Positions 2,661-24,087 of a DNA stretch of 40,799 nucleotides are shown here, piece after piece. A model generated the notes under the pieces. The model had not been told where the DNA came from and made no database searches. It saw nothing but the letters and a program-made list of their open reading frames with translations. The stretch's first letter is position 1, and every line of letters starts with the position of its first letter. Source of the stretch: a virus; the IMG/VR virus record IMGVR_UViG_3300042691_023248, positions 1 to 40,799 of that record; one strand, 5' to 3'. A program made the translations under genes and the position numbers.

Positions 2661-2692
2661 GAAAATGGGGGTCATTGATCCCCATTTTTTAT
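2661..2692. terminator. Terminator hairpin between converging sheath and endonuclease genes
   Basis: AAAATGGGG (2662-2670) pairs with CCCCATTTT (2680-2688) around a 9-nt loop, followed by a T-run on the plus strand. It lies between convergent genes and overlaps the stop codon of the minus-strand endonuclease (2672-2674). The minus strand also ends in a T-rich run, so it may work both ways. Confidence 0.85.
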
Positions 2693-4207
2693 TTCTAATT
2701 CAAATTTTAAAGACCCACAATCCCAAATTCGATCAAAATTTTTAATCTGCATTATTTCCCATTCAGTTTGGTCATTACTATAACCTTCTTTAATTAAAAC
2801 ATCTTTACGGTAGTTAAATCTATGATGTCTCTTTAAAAAATGTTTCGTATCTAAATACCAATAATTTGGTGTTGTTAGTTTAATGAAATTAAAACCATTT
2901 TTAGAATATACTGTATTATTTGGGTTTATACCGGACCATCTAGCATCAGCAAATGTAATGATTTTTTTTACTTTCATTTTTTTTACAAAAAAATTGAGAA
3001 GTTTTGAAAACCCACCTACAATATTTAATCCCAGTTTGGTACAGAACCTAACTAATTCATATTCATTTTCATCCTTTTTAGTATTACCAAGAACTTTTCT
3101 TTTATTAGCAAATGTCATCACACCAACTAACTCATTTTGATAAAACAATCCATATCTAAATTTATCAACAGTATCACTTTGTATATGATTTATATTGATA
3201 AACTCTTTGGATTCTTTTTTTGTAATTTCTTTTAATTCACACTTTCTAGCGTAAATAGATTTGTTAAGTCCAATTAAATTTGAAATTCTTGAAATAACAA
3301 TTTCTTTTTTTTGTAGGATTTCATCTTCAAATATCTGTAATAACTTTATCCCTTTTTGATCTGCAAGTTTTGTTTTATTTATATGGTAAACTTTGTCCTT
3401 ACGGCCATTTATTTCGGAATGGTAGTAATGACCATTTATTTCAATCCCAATGTTGTGTTCCGGTAAATAAATATCAATTTCACCACCACATAATAATTTT
3501 CTAACATTATCAATATGTGAAATATTATTTTTATTTAAAAAATCTTTTAAAACAAGTTCTAATGATGAATTTTTATCGATTGGGTTACATTTCCTACAAA
3601 TTGGGGTTTTACCCGAACCTAATAATGTACTTGTAAATATATGGTTACACTTCAAACATTTAAAATTATATGATAATGAAGTATTTTTATTTTTATTGAC
3701 AGTATAGTCATCAAGTAGTTCTAAATCATATCCATTAAGTTTTGGTAATAAATTTTTTAAATGTTTATCTCTAAAAGTTTTTTTTAATTTATCAACAAAT
3801 TCTTTTTTGTGCATAGGGAACTCAACACCATATTTTTTTAAAAAAATTTCTTTCTTCTTGTTTTGGAACTCTTGAGTTTTAAATATACTATCAACACCGT
3901 ATTTTTTAATCATTGATTTTTTACTTTGGTTAATTCGATGATTAATGTTTTTATCCATATTATTCCAGATTTTACGACATTCATCTGAACAAATTTTTTT
4001 TTGATGTTTAATTCTTTCATTAAAAATTTTATTACATACCAAACAAGTCCTATCTTCTCTAACCGATAGGTCTTTTTGTTTACCAATAGTTTTATTTTTT
4101 TTTGCATTAGCAAAATAACAAGTCCTACCACAAAATTTCTTGTCCCTATGTTTGAAATCTGCGGCAAATAATTTTTTACATTCTCGACATTCTAATTCAA
4201 TCTTCAT
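2672..4207 (-). CDS. Homing endonuclease, Vsr/EDxHD-like, with N-terminal zinc fingers
   Basis: Probable free-standing homing endonuclease of 511 residues. I chose the ATG at 4205-4207 because the protein then begins MKIELECRECKKLF, directly at a Cys-pair finger; an upstream in-frame start would add 21 residues lacking that character and would run through the regulatory repeat. The N-terminal region has several CxxC pairs, followed by KKYGV-type segments. At residues ~240-262 the motif GGEIDIYLP then IGIEINGHYYHSE resembles the catalytic core of Vsr-like endonucleases (family of I-Bth0305I). A conserved C-terminal half (YARKC, RFCTKLGLNIVGGFSKLL, PNYWYLD, WDCGSLKFELEI) is shared with the gene at 5826-7409. 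It is the only gene on the minus strand and sits between the sheath and the HAD gene, as expected for a mobile insertion. The exact nuclease class is inferred from motifs. Confidence 0.8.
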   Translation of the reverse strand: MKIELECRECKKLFAADFKHRDKKFCGRTCYFANAKKNKTIGKQKDLSVREDRTCLVCNKIFNERIKHQKKICSDECRKIWNNMDKNINHRINQSKKSMIKKYGVDSIFKTQEFQNKKKEIFLKKYGVEFPMHKKEFVDKLKKTFRDKHLKNLLPKLNGYDLELLDDYTVNKNKNTSLSYNFKCLKCNHIFTSTLLGSGKTPICRKCNPIDKNSSLELVLKDFLNKNNISHIDNVRKLLCGGEIDIYLPEHNIGIEINGHYYHSEINGRKDKVYHINKTKLADQKGIKLLQIFEDEILQKKEIVISRISNLIGLNKSIYARKCELKEITKKESKEFININHIQSDTVDKFRYGLFYQNELVGVMTFANKRKVLGNTKKDENEYELVRFCTKLGLNIVGGFSKLLNFFVKKMKVKKIITFADARWSGINPNNTVYSKNGFNFIKLTTPNYWYLDTKHFLKRHHRFNYRKDVLIKEGYSNDQTEWEIMQIKNFDRIWDCGSLKFELEIKNGDQ

Positions 4208-4289
4208 TGGAAAAATATATATGTTAATAACCAAGTGGTCTCTACAATATAAATATAATATAAATTTCAAAAATACAAAATATTTTCCA
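4205..4289 (-). promoter_or_regulatory. Promoter-like motif flanked by an inverted repeat ahead of the minus-strand endonuclease
   Basis: Read on the minus strand, TGGAAAATAT (4289-4280) and ATATTTTTCCA (4218-4208) can pair with one bulge, and the second arm directly abuts the ATG. The loop holds ATATTTATA (4256-4248), the same element found upstream of other genes here, in the gene's own orientation. On the plus strand the same site reads TATAAATA, the T4 late-promoter consensus, so its direction is ambiguous. This is the weakest of the four endonuclease hairpins. Confidence 0.4.
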
Positions 4290-5276: not shown

Positions 5277-5765
5277 ATGGCTGATTTGTTAATGAAAATG
5301 CCTATACCTTACGAACCGAAAAGGGAGAACCGTTGGATTTTGAGATTTCCATCGTCATTAGGAATAAATGAGTGGTATGTTGAGAGTACCTCAAGACCTA
5401 AATTAAAAATTGCAACAACTGAAATACCATTTTTAAATACCTCAACTTATGTTGCTGGTAGATTTAACTGGGAAGAAATTTCAGTTAAGTTTAGAGACCC
5501 AATTGGTCCGTCAGCGTCACAAGCGGTTATGGAATGGATTCGTTTATGTGCTGAGTCCGTAACTGGTCGTATGGGTTATGCCGCTGGATATAAGAAAAAT
5601 GTTGATCTTGAAATGCTTGACCCAACCGGTGTTGTTGTTGAGAAGTGGATATTAGAAGGGGCTTTCTTAACTGGATATGATGGAGGTTCATTGGATTATT
5701 CAAGCGATAAAATCGCTGGAATTTCTTCAAACATCCGTATGGATCGTTGTATATTAGTTTATTAA
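5277..5765 (+). CDS. Tail tube protein (gp19-like)
   Basis: 162 residues, close to the T4 gp19 length (163). Tube subunits stack as rings inside the sheath and form the DNA channel. The sequence shows the family pattern: MPIPYEPKRENRWILRFP at the start, IPFLNTSTYVAGRFNWEEISVKFRDP in the middle, and a closing segment with ILEGAFLTGYDGGSLDYSS. The start is clear: an ATG preceded by an A-rich leader without Shine-Dalgarno. Neighbours are the sheath (upstream, separated by two other genes) and the gp26-like chaperone (downstream, separated by an endonuclease), so the order sheath, tube, chaperone, tape measure is kept despite the insertions. Confidence 0.93.
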   Translation: MADLLMKMPIPYEPKRENRWILRFPSSLGINEWYVESTSRPKLKIATTEIPFLNTSTYVAGRFNWEEISVKFRDPIGPSASQAVMEWIRLCAESVTGRMGYAAGYKKNVDLEMLDPTGVVVEKWILEGAFLTGYDGGSLDYSSDKIAGISSNIRMDRCILVY

Positions 5766-5795: not shown

Positions 5796-5833
5796 AAATC
5801 CATATATTTATTATAAAATAGATATATGGATTT
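5796..5833 (+). promoter_or_regulatory. 17-bp hairpin with embedded promoter-like motif; start codon in the stem
   Basis: Bases 5796-5812 pair with 5817-5833 around an ATAA loop, with one G-T pair (5808/5821) and no mismatch. The left arm contains ATATTTATT (5804-5812); the right arm contains the ATG (5826-5828) of the endonuclease. A transcript from upstream would fold the start codon into the stem. A transcript started about 6-8 nt after the motif would lack the left arm and leave the start free. This is the arrangement known for T4 I-TevI, e and soc; the function here is inferred. Confidence 0.7.
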
Positions 5834-7409
5834 TTCTTTTTTTACAACTGATAATAAATCTGGTTATAAAACCAATGAAAAATGGTTAGAAAAAAATCAA
5901 CCGGAACTCTATAATAAAATTATTAGTAATTCAAATTCAACACAACCAGATATAAATTTCAAAGAAAAAATATATTTTTATTTTCATAACTTAACCGAAA
6001 GACCAAAATGTTTAAAATGTGGTACCGAAGTTAAATTTAGAAATAGATTTGATAAACCATATGGTGATTTCTGTTCATTAACTTGTGCTAACAACAATAA
6101 GGAAGAACTAGTTAAACGACAAAAAGAAACATTCAATAAAAAATACGGTGTTGATTTCTATCCACAACATAAGGAATTTATTTTCAAACAGAAAAAAACA
6201 AAATTGTTAAATTATGGTAATGAAAATTACAATAATACAGAAAAAAATAAAAAAACAAGATTGGAAAAATATGGTAATGAAAATTACAATAACATAGAAA
6301 AACAAAAACAAACTTGTTTAGTTAAATATGGTGAAGACAATTATAGTAAATCAAACAATTACCAAAATAAAATTACAAAAAAATTTAAGGAACTATACCC
6401 GGATATTTTATTCAATGAGATTAAAAAAAATTCGGTAATAATAGATTGTCAAAAATGTAGGACATCTTGTGAATTAACAAAACAATTACTATATGAAAGA
6501 TATAAAAGAAAATATGATGTTTGTTTAAATTGTAACCCACTCGGATTTAAACAAAGAAGTGGTTATGAAGATGAGTTATCAAATTTTTTAGATCAACTAA
6601 ATGTTAAATATTTAACAAATTATAAATTACCAAAAACAAAATTAGAAATTGATATTTTTATTCCGGACCACAATTTAGGGATTGAATTTAATGGACTATA
6701 TTGGCATAATGAATTATTTAAAACACCAACATATCATTTAGAAAAAACAAATAAATGTAATGAAAATGGTATTAGTTTAATTCACATTTTTGAAGACGAA
6801 TGGGTATATAATTGTGAAATTGTTAAATCAGTTATTAAGAACAAATTAAATATTTCTAGTGGTAGTGTTTACGCTAGAAAATGTGTTATAAAAGAAGTTA
6901 ATCCACTCACATCAAAAAAATTCCTTGAAGACAATCATATACAAGGTAATGTTAACTCAAAAGTAAGATTGGGATTATTTTATAATAATGAACTTATATC
7001 TTTAATGACCTTTTCCAAAGGTAGAATTATTATGGGTGGAAAAAAAGATGAGTGGGAATTAAATAGATTTTGTAATAAATTAAACACCAATGTTGTTGGT
7101 GCCGCCTCAAGGTTGTTGAAAAATTTTATAAAAAATTACAACCCTAATAAAATTATTTCATATTCTGATGTTAGAATTTTTGATGGACAAATGTACGGTA
7201 AATTAAATTTTAAAAAAATATTACAATCAAAACCAAATTATTGGTATGTTATTGGAAATAAAAGACATTATAGATTCAATTTTAACAAATCAAATTTAAT
7301 TAAAAAAGGTTATAACCCAAGTAAAACCGAAAAAGAAATTATGTTTGAAAGGAAAATTTATAGAATATATGATTGTGGAAATGTTAGGTGGGAATTAACT
7401 ATTGATTAA
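5826..7409 (+). CDS. Homing endonuclease, Vsr/EDxHD-like, with 19-residue repeats
   Basis: 527 residues, homologous to the minus-strand endonuclease at 2672-4207 over the second half. An N-terminal zinc-finger-like region (CLKCGTEV, then CSLTCAN) is followed by NKKYGVDFY and three 19-residue repeats built on KYGNENYNN (DNA about 6213-6370), a probable DNA-reading array. The catalytic-core-like motif LEIDIFIP then LGIEFNGLYWHNE is at residues ~273-297, followed by LIHIFEDEW. The C-terminal half has YARKC, WELNRFCNKLNTNVVGAASR, PNYWYV and YDCGNVRWEL. It is inserted between tail tube and tail chaperone. The start is the ATG in the hairpin at 5796-5833, so translation is probably limited to transcripts beginning inside that hairpin. 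Codon use is like its neighbours. Confidence 0.82.
   Translation: MDFSFFTTDNKSGYKTNEKWLEKNQPELYNKIISNSNSTQPDINFKEKIYFYFHNLTERPKCLKCGTEVKFRNRFDKPYGDFCSLTCANNNKEELVKRQKETFNKKYGVDFYPQHKEFIFKQKKTKLLNYGNENYNNTEKNKKTRLEKYGNENYNNIEKQKQTCLVKYGEDNYSKSNNYQNKITKKFKELYPDILFNEIKKNSVIIDCQKCRTSCELTKQLLYERYKRKYDVCLNCNPLGFKQRSGYEDELSNFLDQLNVKYLTNYKLPKTKLEIDIFIPDHNLGIEFNGLYWHNELFKTPTYHLEKTNKCNENGISLIHIFEDEWVYNCEIVKSVIKNKLNISSGSVYARKCVIKEVNPLTSKKFLEDNHIQGNVNSKVRLGLFYNNELISLMTFSKGRIIMGGKKDEWELNRFCNKLNTNVVGAASRLLKNFIKNYNPNKIISYSDVRIFDGQMYGKLNFKKILQSKPNYWYVIGNKRHYRFNFNKSNLIKKGYNPSKTEKEIMFERKIYRIYDCGNVRWELTID
6213..6383 (+). repeat. Three 57-bp tandem repeats in the endonuclease gene
   Basis: TATGGTAATGAAAATTACAA begins at 6213 and again at 6270; a diverged third copy (TATGGTGAAGACAATTATAG) begins at 6327. 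The spacing of 57 nt gives a 19-residue protein unit (KYGNENYNN core). Confidence 0.75.
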
Positions 7410-7444: not shown

Positions 7445-8209
7445 ATGGAAATGAATGAATATCAAATAGGACAACAAGACTTTAATTTACCACATGACAT
7501 AGTTCCATTACCTAGTGGTGGGATTTTTTATAAATCAAAAAAGAAATCAATTAAAGTTGGTTATTTAACGGCATCCGATGAAAATCTTTTATTAAATGCT
7601 AATGTTAGAAGAAGTGTTAGAGAATCATTAATTTTACCATTATTAAGATCCAAAATTTACGAAAAAGATTTAAGACCAGAAGAACTATTAGAAGGTGATA
7701 TTGAAGCAATACTTTTGTTTTTAAGAAACACGTCTTTTGGACCGGAGTATAACGTTTCACTTATTGATCCAATTACAGACAAACAATTTGTAACTTCAAT
7801 ATTATTGGACGAATTGAATATTAAGAAAACAGTTGAAAAACCAGACGAAAATGGTGTATTCACAATAACATTACCAAAATCAAAAAATACTTTAAAATTA
7901 AAACTTTTGTCTTTAACAGAACAAATGGAAATTGACAAAATGATTGATTCTTATCCGGAAAATAGAATTCCACCAACAGTTACTTGGAAATTAGCAAAAA
8001 GTATTATTGAACTTAATGGTGATTCCGATAGGGGAAAAATTGCATTATTTTCAGAAAATATGCCAATAGCTGATTCTAAATTTATTAGAACTTTCTTAAG
8101 AGAAAATGAACCAAGATTAGATTTAACAAAAGAAGTAATAGCCCCGTCTGGAGAAAAAGTAGTAGCCAATATTACTTTTGGGGTTGAATTTTTTCGGCCT
8201 TTCTTCTAA
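7445..8209 (+). CDS. gp26-like baseplate hub / tail assembly chaperone
   Basis: 254 residues, matching the T4 base plate protein family of gp26/gp51 type: LPHDIVPLPSGGIFY at the N-terminus, VGYLTASDENLLLN, VRESLILPLLRSKI, LRNTSFGPEYNV, and the end ITFGVEFFRPFF. Family members are baseplate-hub assembly factors or tail assembly chaperones rather than long-lived parts of the particle. It lies directly before the tape measure gene, the usual place for such chaperones. The last codons (TTT TTT CGG CCT TTC TTC TAA) overlap another open frame (8166-8351) in the +1 phase, which suggests that part of the product is extended by frameshifting (see 8189-8197). The start is the ATG at 7445; MNEY four codons later (7451) cannot be ruled out. 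Confidence 0.85.
   Translation: MEMNEYQIGQQDFNLPHDIVPLPSGGIFYKSKKKSIKVGYLTASDENLLLNANVRRSVRESLILPLLRSKIYEKDLRPEELLEGDIEAILLFLRNTSFGPEYNVSLIDPITDKQFVTSILLDELNIKKTVEKPDENGVFTITLPKSKNTLKLKLLSLTEQMEIDKMIDSYPENRIPPTVTWKLAKSIIELNGDSDRGKIALFSENMPIADSKFIRTFLRENEPRLDLTKEVIAPSGEKVVANITFGVEFFRPFF
8189..8197 (+). other. Candidate +1 ribosomal frameshift site (TTT TTT CGG)
   Basis: In the gp26-like frame the codons are TTT (8189-8191), TTT (8192-8194), CGG (8195-8197). A peptidyl-tRNA-Phe on the second TTT can shift +1 onto TTC, its better match, while the ribosome waits at the CGG codon, which looks rare in this AGA-rich genome. The new frame reads GGC CTT TCT and continues to 8351. A -2 shift on the T-run would give the same frame. 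Confidence 0.55.
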
Positions 8210-8351
8210 TTATTCTGTATATATGTTGGATGAATTTTATATTCTATCCAAAATCATTAGAATGCAATATTCCGAATTTCTAAAAATTCCCACTTACGTT
8301 AGAAAATATTTAATAGAAAAGATAATTGAGGAACAAAAACCCAAAACATAA
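8193..8351 (+). CDS. Downstream (+1 frame) part of the tail chaperone, or small separate gene
   Basis: This frame is open from 8166 to the stop at 8349-8351. As a frameshift product it adds about 52 residues to the gp26-like protein: FGLSSNYSVY, then MLDEFYILSKIIRMQYSEF and LKIPTYVRKYLIEKII. The pattern of a helix, an aromatic-x-x-F segment, a short proline step (KIP) and Y-V-R-K-Y-L resembles the second half of tail chaperones made by frameshifting (G-GT type) and the small gp51-like ORFs of marine T4-like phages. It could instead start at its own ATG (8223, 42 residues), but no ribosome-binding signal is seen there. The two possibilities are not exclusive. Confidence 0.55.
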   Translation, partial: FGLSSNYSVYMLDEFYILSKIIRMQYSEFLKIPTYVRKYLIEKIIEEQKPKT

Positions 8352-8380: not shown

Positions 8381-10333
8381 GTGGCAAAAAAACAAATTAG
8401 TATCGACAAACGAAGCCGGATTCAAATCAATGATCAGGTTTATACATATGATGATTGGCAAAGTTATGTGTCCGCTGAAGTTGCAAAAAATCAAAGTCAA
8501 ACACAAACAGCCACTGATGGCGGTATTAACCAATTAGATGATAGTAGTAAAAAATTTAATGGTAATATATTTGATTTAACCGCAACTGTTAATGGTTATA
8601 AAGATGCTGTTGCTGGGGCAATGGGAACAATTGGTAGTACCTTAATAAAATTAGATAATAGTGGTACTCAAATTATGAATTCACTTGGTACCACTAGATC
8701 AAGATTAGGTGAATTTAAAGCGGTATACGCTGAATCAATTTCTAAATTTACTGAAATGGATCTTGGTGATCCAGCCGAAGTATATGGTAAAATTTCTGAA
8801 GCTTTAGGTAAAGCATCTAGTCTTGGTGTTCAGGCATTAACTGAAGTTAAGGCAACAGCTAAAGTAACAGGAACTGAAGCTGGTGATTTAGCCGATAGAT
8901 TTGATAGTGTTGGTGTTTCCATTTACGATGTTGGGGATTCAATGAAAGAAGTTGTTAATTACACAAGATCTGTTGGTGGTAATGTAACTGGGGTTAGTAA
9001 ATTAGTTCTTAGCAATCTTGAAAAGATGAATGTCTACAATTTTAGTAATGGTGTTATGGGTCTTACTAAAATGGCAGCTGAAGCTAGTAGACTTGGAATA
9101 AATATGGATAAAGTATTTGCAAAATCCGAAGAATTATTAAATCCAGAAAATGCAATAGAAATGGCATCATCATTACAAGCTTTAGGTGTTGCAAATTCAG
9201 AAATGTTAGATCCGTTACGACTTATGGATATGGGTCTTAATGGTCCTGACGAACTTATGAAAGGAATGAAAGATGTAACAAAAGAATTTGTACAATTAAA
9301 TGAAAAGGGTCAATTTGAGATTATGCCTGGCGCCAAGAGGAGAATGAGAGAAGTGGCTCAAGCTATGGGTATGAATGCTGATGAATTTGCAAGAATGGCA
9401 CTTAAATCCGCAGATTTTGATAGAAAATTAAAAGAAATTAGAATGCCTGATTTTGTTGGTAGTGAAGAAACTAAAGAAATGATTGCATCTATGGCCCAAA
9501 TGAAAGATGGTAAAGCCGTTATTACTGTTAAGGATGCTAAAACCGGAATTGCCAAAGAAAAAGAAGTTGATCAATTAACACCAGAAGATATTACTAATTT
9601 AAAATTAAGTCAGGAAGAAAGTGCAAAAACTATGGAAGAACTTGCAGTTGATCAATTAGGTGTTCAAAAAAGAATTTTATTAGCACAAGAAGCTGTAGCT
9701 GAAAGATTTGGTTATTCAATAGCAGCTGCCGCTCCAACACAAAGAGCTTTTGATACATTTGCTGGAATACAAACACAAACGGCAAAAGAAACATTATCTG
9801 AAGGGGGACCTGTAGATTTTAAATTTTTAACAAAAAATTTTAGTGAACTTGGTGTTACACTAGAACAAGTTGCACTTTCTTTAACAAACGGAAAATTTGA
9901 AGAAAACCTTGGCGGTTTAGTGGGTAATCTTGATAGTTTTGCAACTGAAATAACAAGTAGAATGGACACAATGTTTAATAACATTAAAAACCAAGCTCAA
10001 CAACAATTCCAAACTACATATGGAATTAGTACACCAACCACAACTGGTGGTACAAAAACACAGACAACAAAACCGGTAACAACAACACCGACAACAACAC
10101 CAACAACACTACCACCATTAACAACTCAAAACAAAAATTTAACCGAAGTAATTACAAGTTCTGATGTCAGAGTAAATGTTGTTGTAAGTGCCGATTCAAG
10201 TTTAGCTACAGCTTCAGTTAACCAACAAGAATTAAATACTGCTATAACAAATTACTTTAAAGATTATGACAACCTCCAAAAAATATTTAATATAGACCCA
10301 AATACTGGGTTAGTAAAAGGAAAACAATACTAA
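8381..10333 (+). CDS. Probable tail tape measure protein (gp29-like)
   Basis: 650 residues, close to T4 gp29 (590), in the position directly after the tail chaperone. It is rich in Ala, Met, Lys and long helical stretches (for example MTKMAAEASRLG-like and REVAQAMGMNADEFARMA segments) with few aromatics and no enzyme motif, as in tape measures that set tail length inside the tube. Residues ~550-585 are Thr/Pro-rich (TTTPTTTPTTLPPL), a probable linker to a small C-terminal domain that would sit in the hub. The start is GTG at 8381; no other nearby start fits the leader. Assignment rests on position, length and composition, not on a recognised catalytic motif. Confidence 0.65.
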   Translation: MAKKQISIDKRSRIQINDQVYTYDDWQSYVSAEVAKNQSQTQTATDGGINQLDDSSKKFNGNIFDLTATVNGYKDAVAGAMGTIGSTLIKLDNSGTQIMNSLGTTRSRLGEFKAVYAESISKFTEMDLGDPAEVYGKISEALGKASSLGVQALTEVKATAKVTGTEAGDLADRFDSVGVSIYDVGDSMKEVVNYTRSVGGNVTGVSKLVLSNLEKMNVYNFSNGVMGLTKMAAEASRLGINMDKVFAKSEELLNPENAIEMASSLQALGVANSEMLDPLRLMDMGLNGPDELMKGMKDVTKEFVQLNEKGQFEIMPGAKRRMREVAQAMGMNADEFARMALKSADFDRKLKEIRMPDFVGSEETKEMIASMAQMKDGKAVITVKDAKTGIAKEKEVDQLTPEDITNLKLSQEESAKTMEELAVDQLGVQKRILLAQEAVAERFGYSIAAAAPTQRAFDTFAGIQTQTAKETLSEGGPVDFKFLTKNFSELGVTLEQVALSLTNGKFEENLGGLVGNLDSFATEITSRMDTMFNNIKNQAQQQFQTTYGISTPTTTGGTKTQTTKPVTTTPTTTPTTLPPLTTQNKNLTEVITSSDVRVNVVVSADSSLATASVNQQELNTAITNYFKDYDNLQKIFNIDPNTGLVKGKQY

Positions 10334-10375: not shown

Positions 10376-13300
10376 ATGTCAGATAGTTTTTTGTCATTTA
10401 CATCATCAGCATCATTTAGAAATTCTTTAATTGCTAGAAATTTAGCACCATATAGTGTACAAGGAACTTTTTCACCACAAGTAAGTAATATTAATTATGA
10501 AACAAATTTATCTGTTGCAAATGTTATTGATTCACCAAACAATCTTGTAAGTACAAACACACAAGCAAATGGTTTATATCCATTAAATGAGTATGGACCA
10601 GATGGTGGTTTTGGACAACCAATAAACTTAGCTGGGCCACCATTACCGGTTGATTCAAATAAAGGGCCGTATGACCCAAATGATACTGTAATTGATTTAG
10701 TTAATGAATTTTTTATTGATGCGGCTTACGTACAAAATAATTATGGACCAGAAGGTGGGTTTACAAATTTAGTAACAATTACAGATATTGTAACAAATGG
10801 AAAAATTTCGTTACCGTATTGGGACCCACAAGTATTTGTTCCATCATCTTATAACCCATATGAAATTCTATCAAGCTCAAATCCAAATGGAAGTAATGGT
10901 AGTTTATCACAAGATTCATATATTATACAATTAGGATCAAGTGTCTTAAAAAACTTATTATTACAAAATCAAAATTTTTACACACAACAAAGTTTACAGA
11001 ATCAAAACTCAATAAACTTTAGTATAACAGTTGATGATGTAAACGATAATTATTTAAGTCGATTAGGTGGGTCATATACTCCGTTTTCTCCAATACCCGG
11101 TGATTATTTTTTAGACGGTACTACAAGTAGAACAACCGATACAGTTGGTGAAGCAATAAATTTAATCGCCGGTAGAAGTACTTTATTTGGTGGTGCGTTA
11201 AATGGAGGATTAACAAGAGCTGTTAATCAATCACAATTATTTTTAGAAAATACCAATGACGGACAAAAAGGTATTATGTTTGCAAATATTTCTAAAAACA
11301 TATACAGACCGGCTTATGGTGGTTCACTTTTGGCGGGCATTGGTACAAATTTAATAACAACAGGAATAAATAGTTTAATTGACGGCTTTGGTGTACAATT
11401 ACCAGGTGCGTATTATGTTGGTTCCACTTTATCAGAACCCGCATATTTGGAATCACCTATTGATGCTGTACCAACAGATGTTTTTGGTAGAGACACCCAA
11501 GCAATTGTTTTTGGTCCGGATGTATTAGGTAACGAATATGAAAAAAATCAAGAAAAAATTAATTTTGGGTTAAAAGCTAAATCATATACAAATAGTGGAA
11601 GTATTGATGGTGAGTTTATTTGGACATCACCAAAATATAAAGATAATGCCGGTTTTTATGTATCACCTGGTGGGGCTCCAACATCACTTGACGATACATT
11701 TAACTTTGTTGAAGCAAACTACAATAAAAATTTATCAACAAATATTGATTTTAAACCCGGATCAATATTAGATGATACACAAAGGTTAATTAATTCTGCG
11801 GATAGTCTACAAGGTGAGGCTAGATTAAAACATGTTGGAAACGCGATAAACCAAGTTTCAAAAGTTTTTAACGACGGTTATAAAGAAATAACAAAAGGAT
11901 CACAAGTATTATCATACAAAGATCAAACAGATGGTTCGGAAGCTGGTATTGAATATTGTAGAGTTTTTACAAAAGATACACCATATTTAACATATGGTGA
12001 TTTACAAAAAACAGATGGTATAACAAAATCTGGTAGAAAATTTACATATTCAGTTTTTGATAGTACATATAATTTGAATATCGTACCAATGAAAGGTACA
12101 GATTCAACAAATATTATTGACAATAGGGTTAAAAAATACATGTTCTCAATTGAAAATTTAGCTTGGAGAACATCCGATAGACCGGGTTTTACATATGATG
12201 ATTTACCAAATTGTGAAAAAGGTCCTAATGGTGGTAGAATTATGTGGTTTCCACCCTATGATTTGACTTTTAGCGACAATTCAAAACCAGATTTTAACGG
12301 GACAAGTTTTCTTGGGAGACCAGAACCAATCTATACATATAAAAACACATCAAGAAGTGGAAGTTTAAAATGGAAAATCATTGTTGATAATCCGGGTTCA
12401 TTAAATACAATAATTGAAAAACAATTAGCTAACATACCAAAAGAAAGAATTGATTCAATAGTTGATTCATTTTTTGCTGGTTGTACAAAATATGATATTT
12501 ACGAATTAGGTATAAAATTTAATACAATACCAACAAGAGATTTATATACATATCAAGAAATTTTAAACAACCCAAGATTAACAGAAGAGGAACTAACAGA
12601 AGTATTAAAAGAAATACCGGTTGAAAACACAACAAACGGTTCACCAGAAAGTCCTGTTACGGCAACAAATCAAGGTGGTAATAATAACGCTGAAGCTAGT
12701 AATACGTTTGAAGATCCTTTTAAAAAATTAGAAGGATTGGGATTTTATTTTGCTAATAACCAACCAACTAATGTTGGTTCAACTACATCACAAATAGATT
12801 ATGAAGGATATTTTACAACATATAAAGATGTAGTATATCCAAACACTAAAGATTTAGCACCTCAAGTAGTTAAAGTTGGTGATAGTACTTTTAAAAAAGA
12901 AGACATACCAACTTTATGGGATAAAGTCATTAATGGTAATTTTGAAACATTAAAAAAAGAATTTTTATCTGCTATGGAGGAAGTTATTATTAAAAGAAAT
13001 GGTATTGTTAATTTAACTTTAGAGGGTACAAGTTCAGCTGTTGATGATGCGAATTATAACCAAGAATTATCAGAAAGAAGAATTGATTCTGTTATACAAT
13101 GGATTGAAAGACAAGTTTTTTCGGATGGTACAACCTATAAATCAAAAATACCATCTAAAATAACAATAACTAAAGTTCCACTTGGTGAAAAAGTAATAAT
13201 ACCAAAAGGTGAAGTTAGTTTTAGTGAAATTAATTGTGGTGTAATACCTATTGACGCCGCAACAAACCAAGCAACAAGTAATTCACAATTTAATTCATTA

Positions 13301-15277
13301 CCGGCTATGGCCTGTAGGAGAGTTATAATAAAAGCAGCAAAAGCTACTGTTTTACCAATGCCACAACAACAACCAACCAAACAACCAGTTAAAGAAACAC
13401 CACCAGCAACAGTAGACCAAAAAGTTGAACCGGTACCTTTAAAACCAATATCACAAGTTGACGTACAACAAAAAATTAAAGAAGGTATTTCAAAAAAAGT
13501 ATTAAGACAATTATTTTCAGAGTGTGATTATTTCCAAGTAATAAAGGAAAGTAATCCTATGATATACGATTCTTTTAAAGAAAAAATTAAATATTTTAGT
13601 CCGGCTTTTCACTCAATGACACCGGAAGGATTAAACTCAAGATTAACATTTCTTAATCAATGTACAAGACCTGGACAAACAATACCAGTAATTGGACCAG
13701 ACGGACGACCAAAATATAATGACGCACTAAACACTTCATTTGGTGCACCACCAGTTTTGGTGTTGAGAATTGGTGATTTTTACCACACTAAAATTATACC
13801 AACAAGTTTAGATATTTCATATGAACCGTTACTTTATGACTTAAATCCGGAAGGAATCGGTATTCAACCGATGATTGCAAATATTACAATGGCATTTAAT
13901 ATTATTGGTGGTATGGGACTTAAAGAACCAATTGATCAATTACAAAATGCACTTTCGTTCAATTATTATGCAAACACAGAAGTGTATGATGAAAGAGCAA
14001 CAGCAACTGAAGATACATCAGCTAAAGATAAGTATGTTGTTGAAAAAATATTAAATGCTCAACAACCAGTAAAAAGTAATACTATTGACAATCAAATACC
14101 GGTAAAAGGTGGTGATACAATTGGTAGTATATTAACAACAATTCTATCAGATAATGGTAATATTGAAAGTGGTGAAATAGAATATAATTCTTTATTTAAA
14201 GAACTTTCAGATAATACAAATAAACATTTCAAAACTATTAATAATCAATTAAGAACAATTCAGAACACCTCAAATTATGGAATGTTACAATTGGTTGGTT
14301 TTAAAAGAAAATATTCAGAAGGTGATTTATTTTTCTATAGTGTAAATAAATTTCCGGTTAAAATTTATGGAAAACCCGAAGATGTTGAAAATAGGGTAGA
14401 TTCACTAATAGGTAATGTTGTTGGTGATATTAAAGAGTATAAAGACCCAATAATGTCAAAAATAAAAAACGTTCCGAACATACCAAGTTCAGCATTTAGA
14501 CAAGTTAGCGACAAATTAAAGTCATTAACAAAAAATAAAAAAAACGAATTAAATCAAATTGTTATTGAACCAATTAATGAAATTACAAAATCACAAGAAA
14601 ACTATATACAAACTTTTAAAAAAGTTGATGCTGTTTTATATAGTACTAGTGGAACAACAAAAAGTGGTGTTGATGGCAAAAAATTGGAAACCGGAGATGT
14701 TAAAGTTTTTGATTTAACCGAAATAAGTGGTACAAGTGTTTTTAATGGTATGGTAGAACAGTATAAAAATAAAGTTGGGGATTCACTAAATAAATTTGAT
14801 GAACTTTTAATTTCTAAAAACATATCCAAAAAAGATAATTATCTTGAAGAAGAAACATCATTTGTACCAATTACAAATAAATTAATTGTTGATGAAAATT
14901 GTAGATTTTATATGGTATATGCAAATACATTTGTTAATGACGAAAAATATCAAACATTTTTTAATGAATTAGTTAATTTGGATTTAGTTAAGAAAAATAC
15001 AATTTTAGAAAATGAACTTAAAAAAGTATTAGGTGATTTAAAAGTTTTATTTAAAGAAGAGTTTGACGCTGAAATTAAAAATTTTGACGACTATGAAAAA
15101 AGTTCAGAATATCAAATTTATGACAAATTTGAACTTGATGCTATTGATACAAAAATGAATTATACTACAGATGTAACTGTTGATAAAAATGAAAAAAGAA
15201 GTATTATGAAAAGTGTGTATAGGACCGGAAATGAAAATTTTGATGATAAATTTAATAAAAAAGTTAAATTTAATTAA
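10376..15277 (+). CDS. Large baseplate/tube-end protein with an OmpA-like module
   Basis: 1633 residues, probably a baseplate or tube-cap protein. Two separated regions look like tube-fold domains: WFPPYDL then FLGRPEPIYTYKNTSRSGS (residues ~625-680), and FGAPPVLVLRIGDFYHTKI then SLDISYEPLLYDLNPEGIG (residues ~1120-1180). Between them, at residues ~874-983, NLTLEGTSS, NQELSERRIDSVIQWI and CRRVIIKA fit the OmpA-like peptidoglycan-binding pattern (N-x2-LS-x2-R-x3-V). The N-terminal third is Asn/Ser/Gly-rich without a recognised fold; the C-terminal 400 residues are Lys/Glu-rich and partly coiled-coil-like. It lies between the tape measure and the LysM/hub genes, where T4-type phages keep hub and tube-initiator proteins (gp27/gp48/gp54). 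Family assignment is by position and pattern only. Confidence 0.6.
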   Translation: MSDSFLSFTSSASFRNSLIARNLAPYSVQGTFSPQVSNINYETNLSVANVIDSPNNLVSTNTQANGLYPLNEYGPDGGFGQPINLAGPPLPVDSNKGPYDPNDTVIDLVNEFFIDAAYVQNNYGPEGGFTNLVTITDIVTNGKISLPYWDPQVFVPSSYNPYEILSSSNPNGSNGSLSQDSYIIQLGSSVLKNLLLQNQNFYTQQSLQNQNSINFSITVDDVNDNYLSRLGGSYTPFSPIPGDYFLDGTTSRTTDTVGEAINLIAGRSTLFGGALNGGLTRAVNQSQLFLENTNDGQKGIMFANISKNIYRPAYGGSLLAGIGTNLITTGINSLIDGFGVQLPGAYYVGSTLSEPAYLESPIDAVPTDVFGRDTQAIVFGPDVLGNEYEKNQEKINFGLKAKSYTNSGSIDGEFIWTSPKYKDNAGFYVSPGGAPTSLDDTFNFVEANYNKNLSTNIDFKPGSILDDTQRLINSADSLQGEARLKHVGNAINQVSKVFNDGYKEITKGSQVLSYKDQTDGSEAGIEYCRVFTKDTPYLTYGDLQKTDGITKSGRKFTYSVFDSTYNLNIVPMKGTDSTNIIDNRVKKYMFSIENLAWRTSDRPGFTYDDLPNCEKGPNGGRIMWFPPYDLTFSDNSKPDFNGTSFLGRPEPIYTYKNTSRSGSLKWKIIVDNPGSLNTIIEKQLANIPKERIDSIVDSFFAGCTKYDIYELGIKFNTIPTRDLYTYQEILNNPRLTEEELTEVLKEIPVENTTNGSPESPVTATNQGGNNNAEASNTFEDPFKKLEGLGFYFANNQPTNVGSTTSQIDYEGYFTTYKDVVYPNTKDLAPQVVKVGDSTFKKEDIPTLWDKVINGNFETLKKEFLSAMEEVIIKRNGIVNLTLEGTSSAVDDANYNQELSERRIDSVIQWIERQVFSDGTTYKSKIPSKITITKVPLGEKVIIPKGEVSFSEINCGVIPIDAATNQATSNSQFNSLPAMACRRVIIKAAKATVLPMPQQQPTKQPVKETPPATVDQKVEPVPLKPISQVDVQQKIKEGISKKVLRQLFSECDYFQVIKESNPMIYDSFKEKIKYFSPAFHSMTPEGLNSRLTFLNQCTRPGQTIPVIGPDGRPKYNDALNTSFGAPPVLVLRIGDFYHTKIIPTSLDISYEPLLYDLNPEGIGIQPMIANITMAFNIIGGMGLKEPIDQLQNALSFNYYANTEVYDERATATEDTSAKDKYVVEKILNAQQPVKSNTIDNQIPVKGGDTIGSILTTILSDNGNIESGEIEYNSLFKELSDNTNKHFKTINNQLRTIQNTSNYGMLQLVGFKRKYSEGDLFFYSVNKFPVKIYGKPEDVENRVDSLIGNVVGDIKEYKDPIMSKIKNVPNIPSSAFRQVSDKLKSLTKNKKNELNQIVIEPINEITKSQENYIQTFKKVDAVLYSTSGTTKSGVDGKKLETGDVKVFDLTEISGTSVFNGMVEQYKNKVGDSLNKFDELLISKNISKKDNYLEEETSFVPITNKLIVDENCRFYMVYANTFVNDEKYQTFFNELVNLDLVKKNTILENELKKVLGDLKVLFKEEFDAEIKNFDDYEKSSEYQIYDKFELDAIDTKMNYTTDVTVDKNEKRSIMKSVYRTGNENFDDKFNKKVKFN

Positions 15278-23220: not shown

Positions 23221-24087
23221 ATGGCGACAAACAATGTTTTAGATGCAGTTTTGGCTCAATATGAAAGCTCAAAACAAAGTGGTTCTTCTTCCACTGCAAA
23301 GATGTCACAAGAAGAAAGAATGAAAAAGTATTTTGCTGCAATACTTAAAGACAATGAAAAGCAAGCACAAAAGAAAATCCGTATTTTACCAACTCCAGAC
23401 GGATCTTCACCTTTTAAAGAGGTATGGTTCCACGAAATTCTTGTGGACGGAAAATGGCAGAAATTTTATGATCCAGGAAAAAATGACAATGAACGTTCAC
23501 CATTAAGTGAAGTTTATGATGTTCTTATGTCAACTGGTAAAGAATCTGACAAAGAATTAGCAAAACAATACAAACCTCGTAAGTTTTATATTGTTAAGGT
23601 AATTGACCGTGAGAATGAACAAGATGGACCAAAATTCTGGAGATTCAAACACAATTACAAACAAGAAGGTATTTTTGACAAAATTATTCCTATCTATAAG
23701 GCTAAAGGTGATGTTGCTGATGGTGAAAAAGGAAGAGACCTTATCTTGGAATTAACAAAAGCAAAAACCCCAAAAGGTGCGTTCTACACTGTAATCCAAA
23801 CAGTTATGTATGACGATCCATCTCCGGTTCACGAAGACGAAGAAACAATGACTTCTTGGTTGGAAGACGAACTTACTTGGGAAGATGTTTATTCTAAAAA
23901 ACCAGCAGAATACCTTGAAGCTATTGCTCGTGGTGAAACACCAAGATGGGATTCTGATGCTGGAAAATACATCTACAGTAATACATCCGAAGAAGAAATT
24001 TCAATGGGTGGTAGTAAATCAAAACCAGAAACAACAGTTGAAGACCCACAAGCTGGTGACGACGTTGATGAAGAATTACCGTTCTAA
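23221..24087 (+). CDS. Single-stranded DNA-binding protein (gp32-like)
   Basis: 288 residues, near T4 gp32 (301). It coats ssDNA at the phage fork and organises UvsX, helicase and polymerase. Recognisable parts are the basic N-terminus and QAQKKIRILPTPDGSSPFKEVWFHEI, then FYIVKVIDRENEQDGP, FWRFKHNYKQEGIF and YTVIQTVMYDDPSPVHEDEE, in the order of the gp32 core. There is no cysteine at all, so the zinc site of T4 gp32 is missing. The C-terminus is acidic and ends DDVDEELPF, which resembles the DDDIPF tip of bacterial SSBs. The gene opens the replication block, with its own sigma70-like promoter and its own terminator, suggesting high separate expression. Confidence 0.88.
   Translation: MATNNVLDAVLAQYESSKQSGSSSTAKMSQEERMKKYFAAILKDNEKQAQKKIRILPTPDGSSPFKEVWFHEILVDGKWQKFYDPGKNDNERSPLSEVYDVLMSTGKESDKELAKQYKPRKFYIVKVIDRENEQDGPKFWRFKHNYKQEGIFDKIIPIYKAKGDVADGEKGRDLILELTKAKTPKGAFYTVIQTVMYDDPSPVHEDEETMTSWLEDELTWEDVYSKKPAEYLEAIARGETPRWDSDAGKYIYSNTSEEEISMGGSKSKPETTVEDPQAGDDVDEELPF

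What the first reader, a model, noticed from the sequence alone, without database searches (positions are those of the whole stretch)
8166..8351. Probable +1 programmed frameshift in the gp26-like tail chaperone
The gene ends TTT TTT CGG CCT TTC TTC TAA while a second frame is open from 8166 to 8351. Slipping from TTT to TTC before a rare CGG codon is a textbook +1 setting. The added ~52 residues look like the second half of tail chaperones made by frameshift, which lie just before the tape measure gene, as here. Most known cases use -1 (or -2 in Mu-like phages), so +1 would be notable.
Basis: partly seen in the sequence, partly recalled or inferred. Interest (0 to 1): 0.75.

Follow-up and report, generated by a model that had tools for sequence, protein, structure and literature searches.

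The report
Tail chaperone made by ribosome frameshift
This virus of bacteria appears to make two versions of one tail-building helper protein by having some ribosomes skip one RNA letter, and related viruses make the same pair by slipping the opposite way, which links the T4 proteins gp26 and gp51 to a well-known tail-building system.

Summary
The gp26-like gene (7445-8209) ends GAA TTT TTT CGG CCT TTC TTC TAA, and a second frame is open from 8166 to 8351. All 64 of 64 relatives that could be read, plus the window, keep TTT TTT CGG/CGC and the second frame. The extension evolves as protein-coding DNA only in that frame (median dN/dS 0.40; controls 1.14 and 1.54). Best explanation: programmed +1 frameshifting, P-site tRNA-Phe slipping from UUU to UUC before a rare CGN codon. 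It yields a tail-assembly-chaperone pair, gp26 and gp26 plus 51 residues. The +1 direction rests on 11 of 88 sister clusters whose sites cannot pair after a -2 slip. Going further, T4-like and some jumbo-phage gp26 genes reach the homologous extension by -1 slipping at T TTT TTY (96 of 99 clusters). On the tree the direction changed at least twice. Phage T4 lacks the frameshift; its gp51 looks like a fused paralogue of gp26. Prior art limits novelty: +1 chaperone frameshifts are known or proposed, including TTT-CGC in HF1-group haloviruses. No product was observed; efficiency, stimulators and ratio are untested.

The parts
7445..8209 (+). gp26-like tail chaperone, normal (0-frame) product, 254 aa
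   Evidence: PF12322 T4_baseplate E 2.3e-7; phrog_150 E 2.9e-13; BFVD fold matches to baseplate hub proteins, e.g. Bacillus phage SP-15 E 6.9e-16
8189..8197 (+). shift site TTT TTT CGG (P-site TTT 8192-8194; base passed over C8195; A-site codon CGG)
   Evidence: TTT TTT CGG or CGC in 64 of 64 relatives with a stop plus the window; 37 of 37 unique contexts
8207..8209 (+). 0-frame stop TAA ending the short product
8166..8351 (+). whole open stretch of the +1 frame
   Evidence: open -41 to +142 around the 0-frame stop
8196..8351 (+). +1-frame extension (51 codons plus stop), homologous to the C-terminal part of T4 gp51 through intermediates
   Evidence: median dN/dS 0.398 in this frame, controls 1.14 and 1.54; HMM cross-matches between +1 and -1 extensions; pLDDT about 90 over residues 261-300 of the fused model
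8180..8182 (+). invariant GGG codon 9 nt 5' of the site (possible stimulator, unproven)
   Evidence: 37 of 37 unique contexts although GGG is 51 of 684 Gly codons in the window
5277..5765 (+). tail tube protein
   Evidence: phrog_4542 E 3.8e-24; PF06841 E 1.3e-5, below its cut-off
8381..10333 (+). possible tape measure protein (position only)
   Evidence: no family match; annotated tape measure genes follow gp26 in immuto, SP-15, LIS04 and Cr30

Best explanation
The gene is a tail assembly chaperone of the T4 gp26 family whose longer form is made by programmed +1 ribosomal frameshifting. Most ribosomes stop at 8207-8209 and make gp26 (254 aa). Some pause with tRNA-Phe on the second TTT in the P-site while the rare CGG waits in the A-site; the tRNA slips one base forward from UUU to UUC, and translation goes on GGC CTT TCT to give gp26 residues 1-250 (..EFF) joined to 51 new residues (GLSSNYS..KPKT). 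By analogy with lambda gpG/gpGT, the short form would coat the tape measure protein and the extended minority would recruit tube subunits. Shown by sequence: site, both frames, conservation, selection on the extension, homology. Inferred: that ribosomes shift, the step size in this very sequence, the amount, and the role in assembly.
For: Site kept in 64 of 64 readable relatives plus the window (66 loci given, 2 without a stop; a 67th, a 52-residue match, not used). Extension under purifying selection in its frame. +1-frame residues GL mostly follow the site in both the W and A3 groups although the 0-frame residue changes from R to W there. Across 88 +1 clusters the shift codon is TTT 83, CTT 3, CCC 2; PRFect (passage) reports that at the RF2 site the next most slippery codons after CUU are CCC and UUU. 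UUU_CGU was shown to be +1 by mass spectrometry in influenza PA-X, with the same UUU to UUC re-pairing (PMC3498833, passages). A -2 slip has no sensible re-pairing in 11 of 88 clusters (8 with TTC before TTT, 2 at AAT CCC AGT, 1 at AAC TTT CTA). The base before the Phe pair is T in 2 of 85 +1 clusters, while 96 of 99 -1 clusters have T TTT TTY. Fold: a T4-like gp26 model (L097) has as its top two PDB matches 3fgx (Z 8.6) and HK97 tail assembly chaperone 2ob9 (Z 7.1), next 2.9; that N-terminal region aligns by profile with the window's residues 14-134 (E 2e-7).
Against: No protein or ribosome data. In the window's own lineage the first Phe codon is always TTT (37 of 37 contexts), which plain +1 slipping on the second TTT does not need and which -2 would. 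The tape measure neighbour is not recognisable by sequence. The window model's own match to 2ob9 (Z 5.7, rmsd 3.9, 94 aligned) lies at residues 69-226, not the region matched by L097, so it does not corroborate. Foldseek alone found no PDB match at E <= 0.001. The role in assembly is by analogy only.
Confidence: 0.85

Rival explanations
1. The same frame is reached by a -2 shift on TTTTTT, as in phage Mu, giving one extra Phe (EFFFGLSS).
For: TTTTTTC allows tRNA-Phe to re-pair two bases back; the first codon is always TTT in this lineage; Mu uses -2 (PMC5009743, passage).
Against: 11 of 88 clusters that reach the same frame do so from sites where -2 has no pairing; CTT TGG sites (3 clusters) fit the known RF2 +1 site, although a -2 re-pairing there is not fully excluded.
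Confidence: 0.08
2. RNA polymerase slips on the T run and the longer protein comes from edited mRNA.
For: Runs of 6 or 7 T in the W and A3 groups.
Against: Sister clusters with TTC TTT C, CCC A and TTT CTA have no such run; six T is short for slippage (recalled).
Confidence: 0.03
3. The extension is a separate small gene started at ATG 8223 or TTG 8178, by re-initiation.
For: Start codons exist in the window; KVP40, P-SSM2, S-SM2, Mendera and Cr30 are annotated with such small genes.
Against: 21 of 88 +1 and 32 of 99 -1 clusters have no ATG, GTG or TTG in the frame before 30 nt past the stop (most have one, so this test is weak); five loci have TAG right before the site while the residues after it (FFGLSS or FFGFSS, then DE) are conserved; the heptamer is kept in 96 of 99 -1 clusters.
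Confidence: 0.03
4. Indel or assembly error, or a dying gene.
For: None found beyond one odd locus, L240.
Against: Same arrangement in 181 of 183 cluster representatives and purifying selection.
Confidence: 0.01

Closest known systems
Lambda gpG/gpGT and related frameshift tail assembly chaperones
   Same: Short chaperone plus a minority form extended in another frame; gene lies after the tail tube and, in annotated relatives, before the tape measure gene
   Different: +1 instead of -1; different protein family by sequence (PF12322)
HF1-group haloviruses (PMC7230728, passages)
   Same: Myovirus chaperone pair between tube and tape measure, +1 needed, TTT-CGC in a conserved stretch near the stop
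   Different: Archaeal hosts, six genomes aligned there, no family-wide test; homology to gp26 was not tested here
UUU_CGN +1 sites of influenza A PA-X and plant amalgaviruses (PMC3498833, PMC5052127, passages)
   Same: UUU in the P-site followed by CGN, +1 frame
   Different: RNA viruses of eukaryotes, unrelated proteins
T4-like gp26 with small 'gp51' (KVP40, P-SSM2, S-SM2, Ah1, S13, Mendera, Cr30)
   Same: Homologous chaperone and homologous extension
   Different: -1 frame at T TTT TTC or T TTT TTT
Phage T4 gp26 and gp51
   Same: Both match PF12322 (E 8.8e-64 and 3.9e-52); gp51 alone carries the extension (phrog_634)
   Different: Two separate genes, no frameshift; recalls the two-gene chaperone of phage 0305phi8-36 (PMC2147016, passages)

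Membership tests
Frameshift tail assembly chaperone pair (lambda G/GT type) | Second frame open across the end of the first gene | tested here: met
   181 of 183 cluster representatives against 89 of 410 control ORFs
Frameshift tail assembly chaperone pair (lambda G/GT type) | Conserved slip site at the junction | tested here: met
   64 of 64 relatives plus window
Frameshift tail assembly chaperone pair (lambda G/GT type) | Extension under selection as protein | tested here: met
   median dN/dS 0.398 against 1.14 and 1.54 in control frames
Frameshift tail assembly chaperone pair (lambda G/GT type) | Lies between tail tube gene and tape measure gene | tested here: inconclusive
   Tube upstream, with an endonuclease ORF between; downstream ORF not recognisable; annotated in relatives
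Frameshift tail assembly chaperone pair (lambda G/GT type) | Chaperone fold | tested here: inconclusive
   L097 model: 2ob9 Z 7.1, rmsd 3.1, 79 aligned; after 3fgx (8.6) the next row is 2.9; window model Z 5.7 in another region
Frameshift tail assembly chaperone pair (lambda G/GT type) | Both products made, in an unequal ratio, and absent from the virion | not testable with these tools
   No expression or proteome data
PF12322 T4_baseplate (gp26/gp51) | Profile score above the curated cut-off | tested here: met
   31.2 bits, cut-off 24.5
UUU_CGN +1 frameshift motif | UUU then CGN in the 0 frame inside the overlap, second product in the +1 frame | tested here: met
UUU_CGN +1 frameshift motif | Step of +1 proved by junction peptide | not testable with these tools
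   Needs mass spectrometry
Mu-type -2 frameshift | tRNA can re-pair two bases back | tested here: inconclusive
   Possible in the window; not possible in 11 of 88 sister clusters
T4 gp51 C-terminal extension (phrog_634) | Sequence homology | tested here: inconclusive
   Window extension alone: no phrog_634 match. Through intermediates: +1 HMM matches 91 of 99 -1 extensions, -1 HMM matches 75 of 88 +1 extensions and T4 gp51 at 4.5e-6; +1 HMM against gp51 only 0.023

The most novel reading that the evidence does not exclude
In one homologous chaperone gene the direction of programmed frameshifting has switched between -1 and +1 at least twice while the extension and the Phe-Phe junction stayed; the switch is written in the bases around UUU UUU (U before, for -1; not U before and mostly YGN after, for +1). 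[quoted passage not shown]
Probability: 0.65. Interest if true: 0.82.

Novelty: new variant of a known kind. Interest (0 to 1): 0.72.

Why it matters
It would bring the best-studied phage, T4, under the rule that tailed phages make two chaperone forms, give gp51 a testable role (the extended form), explain unannotated or separately annotated small ORFs next to gp26 in T4-like phages, and offer a natural series of homologous sites in which frameshift direction differs by few bases.

Tried and rejected
Rejected: separate small gene, transcript slippage and sequencing error (see rivals). RNA structure: folds around the site were only mildly stable (z -1.5, -1.6 and -2.26); no stimulator is claimed. 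A Shine-Dalgarno-like stimulator (invariant GGG) was considered: its distance from the P-site codon is not the short one of the RF2 site (recalled), the 20 window gene starts that I printed show no clear Shine-Dalgarno leader by eye, and GGG is not general in the A3 group; left open. PDB sequence search found no solved gp26 or gp51 (two zinc-finger chance hits). The four-letter code TTTC=F gave a second unwanted shift and was dropped. A first alignment for structure prediction misplaced the 0-frame ends and was redone with trimmed rows. BrxL_N, holin and similar weak matches were ignored as chance.

Dropped rows and hand choices: L067 (partial) was never parsed; 9 of 360 parsed loci had no stop before their contig end; 8 loci without an HMM hit were given their frame by hand from the open frame; the list of codons allowed after the +1 shift codon was made after inspecting the sites, so '88 of 88' describes rather than tests. 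The four phages were read singly and are not in the 187 clusters. In the careful tree 85 of 187 representatives were used; L072, L075, L240 and L359 were left out on purpose (long branches or odd) and the rest by quota. The larger quick tree (189 rows) needed 4 changes; L240, L359 and L075 stand as single odd rows in it.

Full report
WHAT IS THERE. The window is a 40,799-base virus record with tail sheath (PF17482), tail tube (5277-5765), a homing-endonuclease-like ORF (5826-7409), a gp26-like gene (7445-8209, PF12322 E 2.3e-7), the finding, and long ORFs after it. The gene ends GGG GTT GAA TTT TTT CGG CCT TTC TTC TAA; the other frame is open 8166-8351. Passing over C8195 joins ..GVEFF to GLSSNYSVYMLDEFYILSKIIRMQYSEFLKIPTYVRKYLIEKIIEEQKPKT.

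CONSERVATION. A search of viral contigs gave 67 relatives; of 66 read, 64 reach a stop, and all 64 and the window have GAR TTT TTT CGG or CGC and the extension. In 37 unique contexts TTT TTT CG is invariant, and so is a GGG codon 9 nt upstream. CGG is 4 and CGC 1 of 358 Arg codons in the window, TTT 464 of 559 Phe codons. Downstream of the 0-frame stop the extension has median dN/dS 0.398 in its own frame (42 unique sequences) against 1.14 and 1.54 in the two other frames; the gp26 frame itself gives 0.265. Five of the loci carry TAG in the second frame one codon before the TTT TTC, so that frame can be entered only at the site. A second frame this open is found after 89 of 410 other ORFs in the same loci but after 181 of 183 gp26 genes.

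FAMILY SURVEY. Phage-record searches with distant members and four more viral-contig scans (three of them capped at 80 loci) gave, with the first set, 360 parsed entries, 351 with a stop: 190 with the extension in the +1 frame and 161 in the -1 frame. At 70% identity these form 187 clusters, 88 and 99, none mixed. The extensions are homologous across classes: an HMM of +1 extensions matches 91 of 99 -1 extensions, the reverse 75 of 88, at E < 0.01 in these small sets.

TWO SLIP GRAMMARS. In the -1 class the first Phe-Phe codon pair in the overlap reads T TTT TTY in 96 of 99 clusters (2 have no pair, 1 another; the search did not ask for the T), the classical -1 heptamer shape. In the +1 class the slip codon is TTT (83), CTT (3) or CCC (2), mostly followed by TGG or CGN, and T precedes the pair in 2 of 85; where the codon before ends in T or C the counts are 2 T and 38 C. 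So synonymous choice (GAC, AAC, AGC against GAT, AAT, AGT) runs in opposite directions in the two classes. TTT, CTT and CCC are the codons reported as most prone to +1 slipping at the RF2 site (passage in PMC10885494; CUU_U and a minority of UUU_U in PMC5009743).

+1 OR -2. Both give the same frame. Among the 88 clusters, 8 have TTC before TTT, 2 slip at AAT CCC AGT and 1 at AAC TTT CTA; in these a tRNA cannot re-pair two bases back (pairing judged by me). The window's own site permits both. UUU_CGU was proved +1 by mass spectrometry for PA-X (PMC3498833, passages). I put +1 well ahead, but the step in this sequence is unproved; the always-TTT first codon is a point for -2.

TREE. On a careful tree of 85 clusters (the last 18 residues, with the junction, cut off) one well-supported split (98/93) parts 36 -1 rows from 49 rows holding all 44 +1 rows; a -1 clade of 5 (100/99; LR756511 and kin) sits inside the +1 side (95/86). 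Two changes are needed, and 0 of 200 bootstrap trees allow one. The quick tree of 189 rows needs 4, some from single odd rows. The root is unknown, so which direction is older is not known.

T4. T4 gp26 and gp51 both match PF12322 over the full profile, BLASTP E 2e-6 to each other; only gp51 has the C-terminal part matching phrog_634, the family of the small KVP40 and P-SSM2 'gp51'. KVP40, P-SSM2, S-SM2, Ah1, S13, Mendera and Cr30 all carry T TTT TTC or T TTT TTT at the end of gp26 with that part in the -1 frame; in Ah1 and S13 it is not annotated. T4 gp26 ends TTC TTT GAG TTA CTA TAA with no such extension. So T4-type phages seem to have replaced frameshifting by a duplicated, fused gene; relatives of T4 gp51 over at least 80% of its length occur in 1,334 of 1,339 matching records. 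A review lists gp26 and gp51 as hub assembly chaperones and calls gp51 essential and of unknown function (PMC3004832, passages). A list of genes shared by T4 relatives names 26; gp51 is not mentioned in that paper's text (PMC2993671, term count and passages). A two-gene substitute for G/GT is on record in phage 0305phi8-36 (PMC2147016, passages).

FOLD. The fused window protein is predicted well (pLDDT 86.3, pTM 0.81; extension helical). For a T4-like gp26 (L097, pLDDT 92.0) the two best of 407 PDB chains are 3fgx (Z 8.6) and HK97 tail assembly chaperone 2ob9 (Z 7.1, rmsd 3.1, 79 aligned), next 2.9. For the window model 2ob9 is also best of 995 (Z 5.7) but over residues 69-226, not the region homologous to L097 1-89 (window about 14-100). 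I read this as support for the family, not proof for the window.

PRIOR ART AND NOVELTY. Chaperone frameshifts of -1, -2 and +1 are known (PMC5009743, passages), and TTT-CGC +1 was proposed for HF1-group haloviruses (PMC7230728, passages). In nine searches of the library (listings and, for ten papers, passages only; open-licence papers only) I saw no report of frameshifting in the gp26 family, of a change of direction within one chaperone family, or of gp26/gp51 as a G/GT pair. Xu et al. 2004 was not read. Hence 'new variant of a known kind'.

Noticed in passing
window 5826-7409 (+) and 2672-4270 (-): Two homing-endonuclease-like ORFs sharing DUF7487 (PF24308) lie in the tail gene cluster; the second also has a Mom-family match.
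   Followed up: no
window 8180-8182: GGG codon invariant in 37 of 37 unique contexts 9 nt before the slip site although GGG is a minor Gly codon; meaning unknown.
   Followed up: partly
L240: Only A3-group locus with the extension in the -1 frame (AAT TTC TTC TGG); perhaps an indel or sequencing error.
   Followed up: partly
L363 and L364 (Aeromonas phage Ah1, Cronobacter phage S13): Extension of gp26 in the -1 frame is not annotated in either record.
   Followed up: yes
L186, L189, L191, L192: Sub-lineage where the Phe site gives way to AAT CCC AGT, a different +1-prone codon.
   Followed up: partly
window 23221-24087: gp32-like single-strand DNA-binding protein (PF08804 E 7.9e-9), fitting a T4-like genome.
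   Followed up: no
window 13116-13124: A second TTTTTTCGG, out of the reading frame of ORF 10376-15277.
   Followed up: yes
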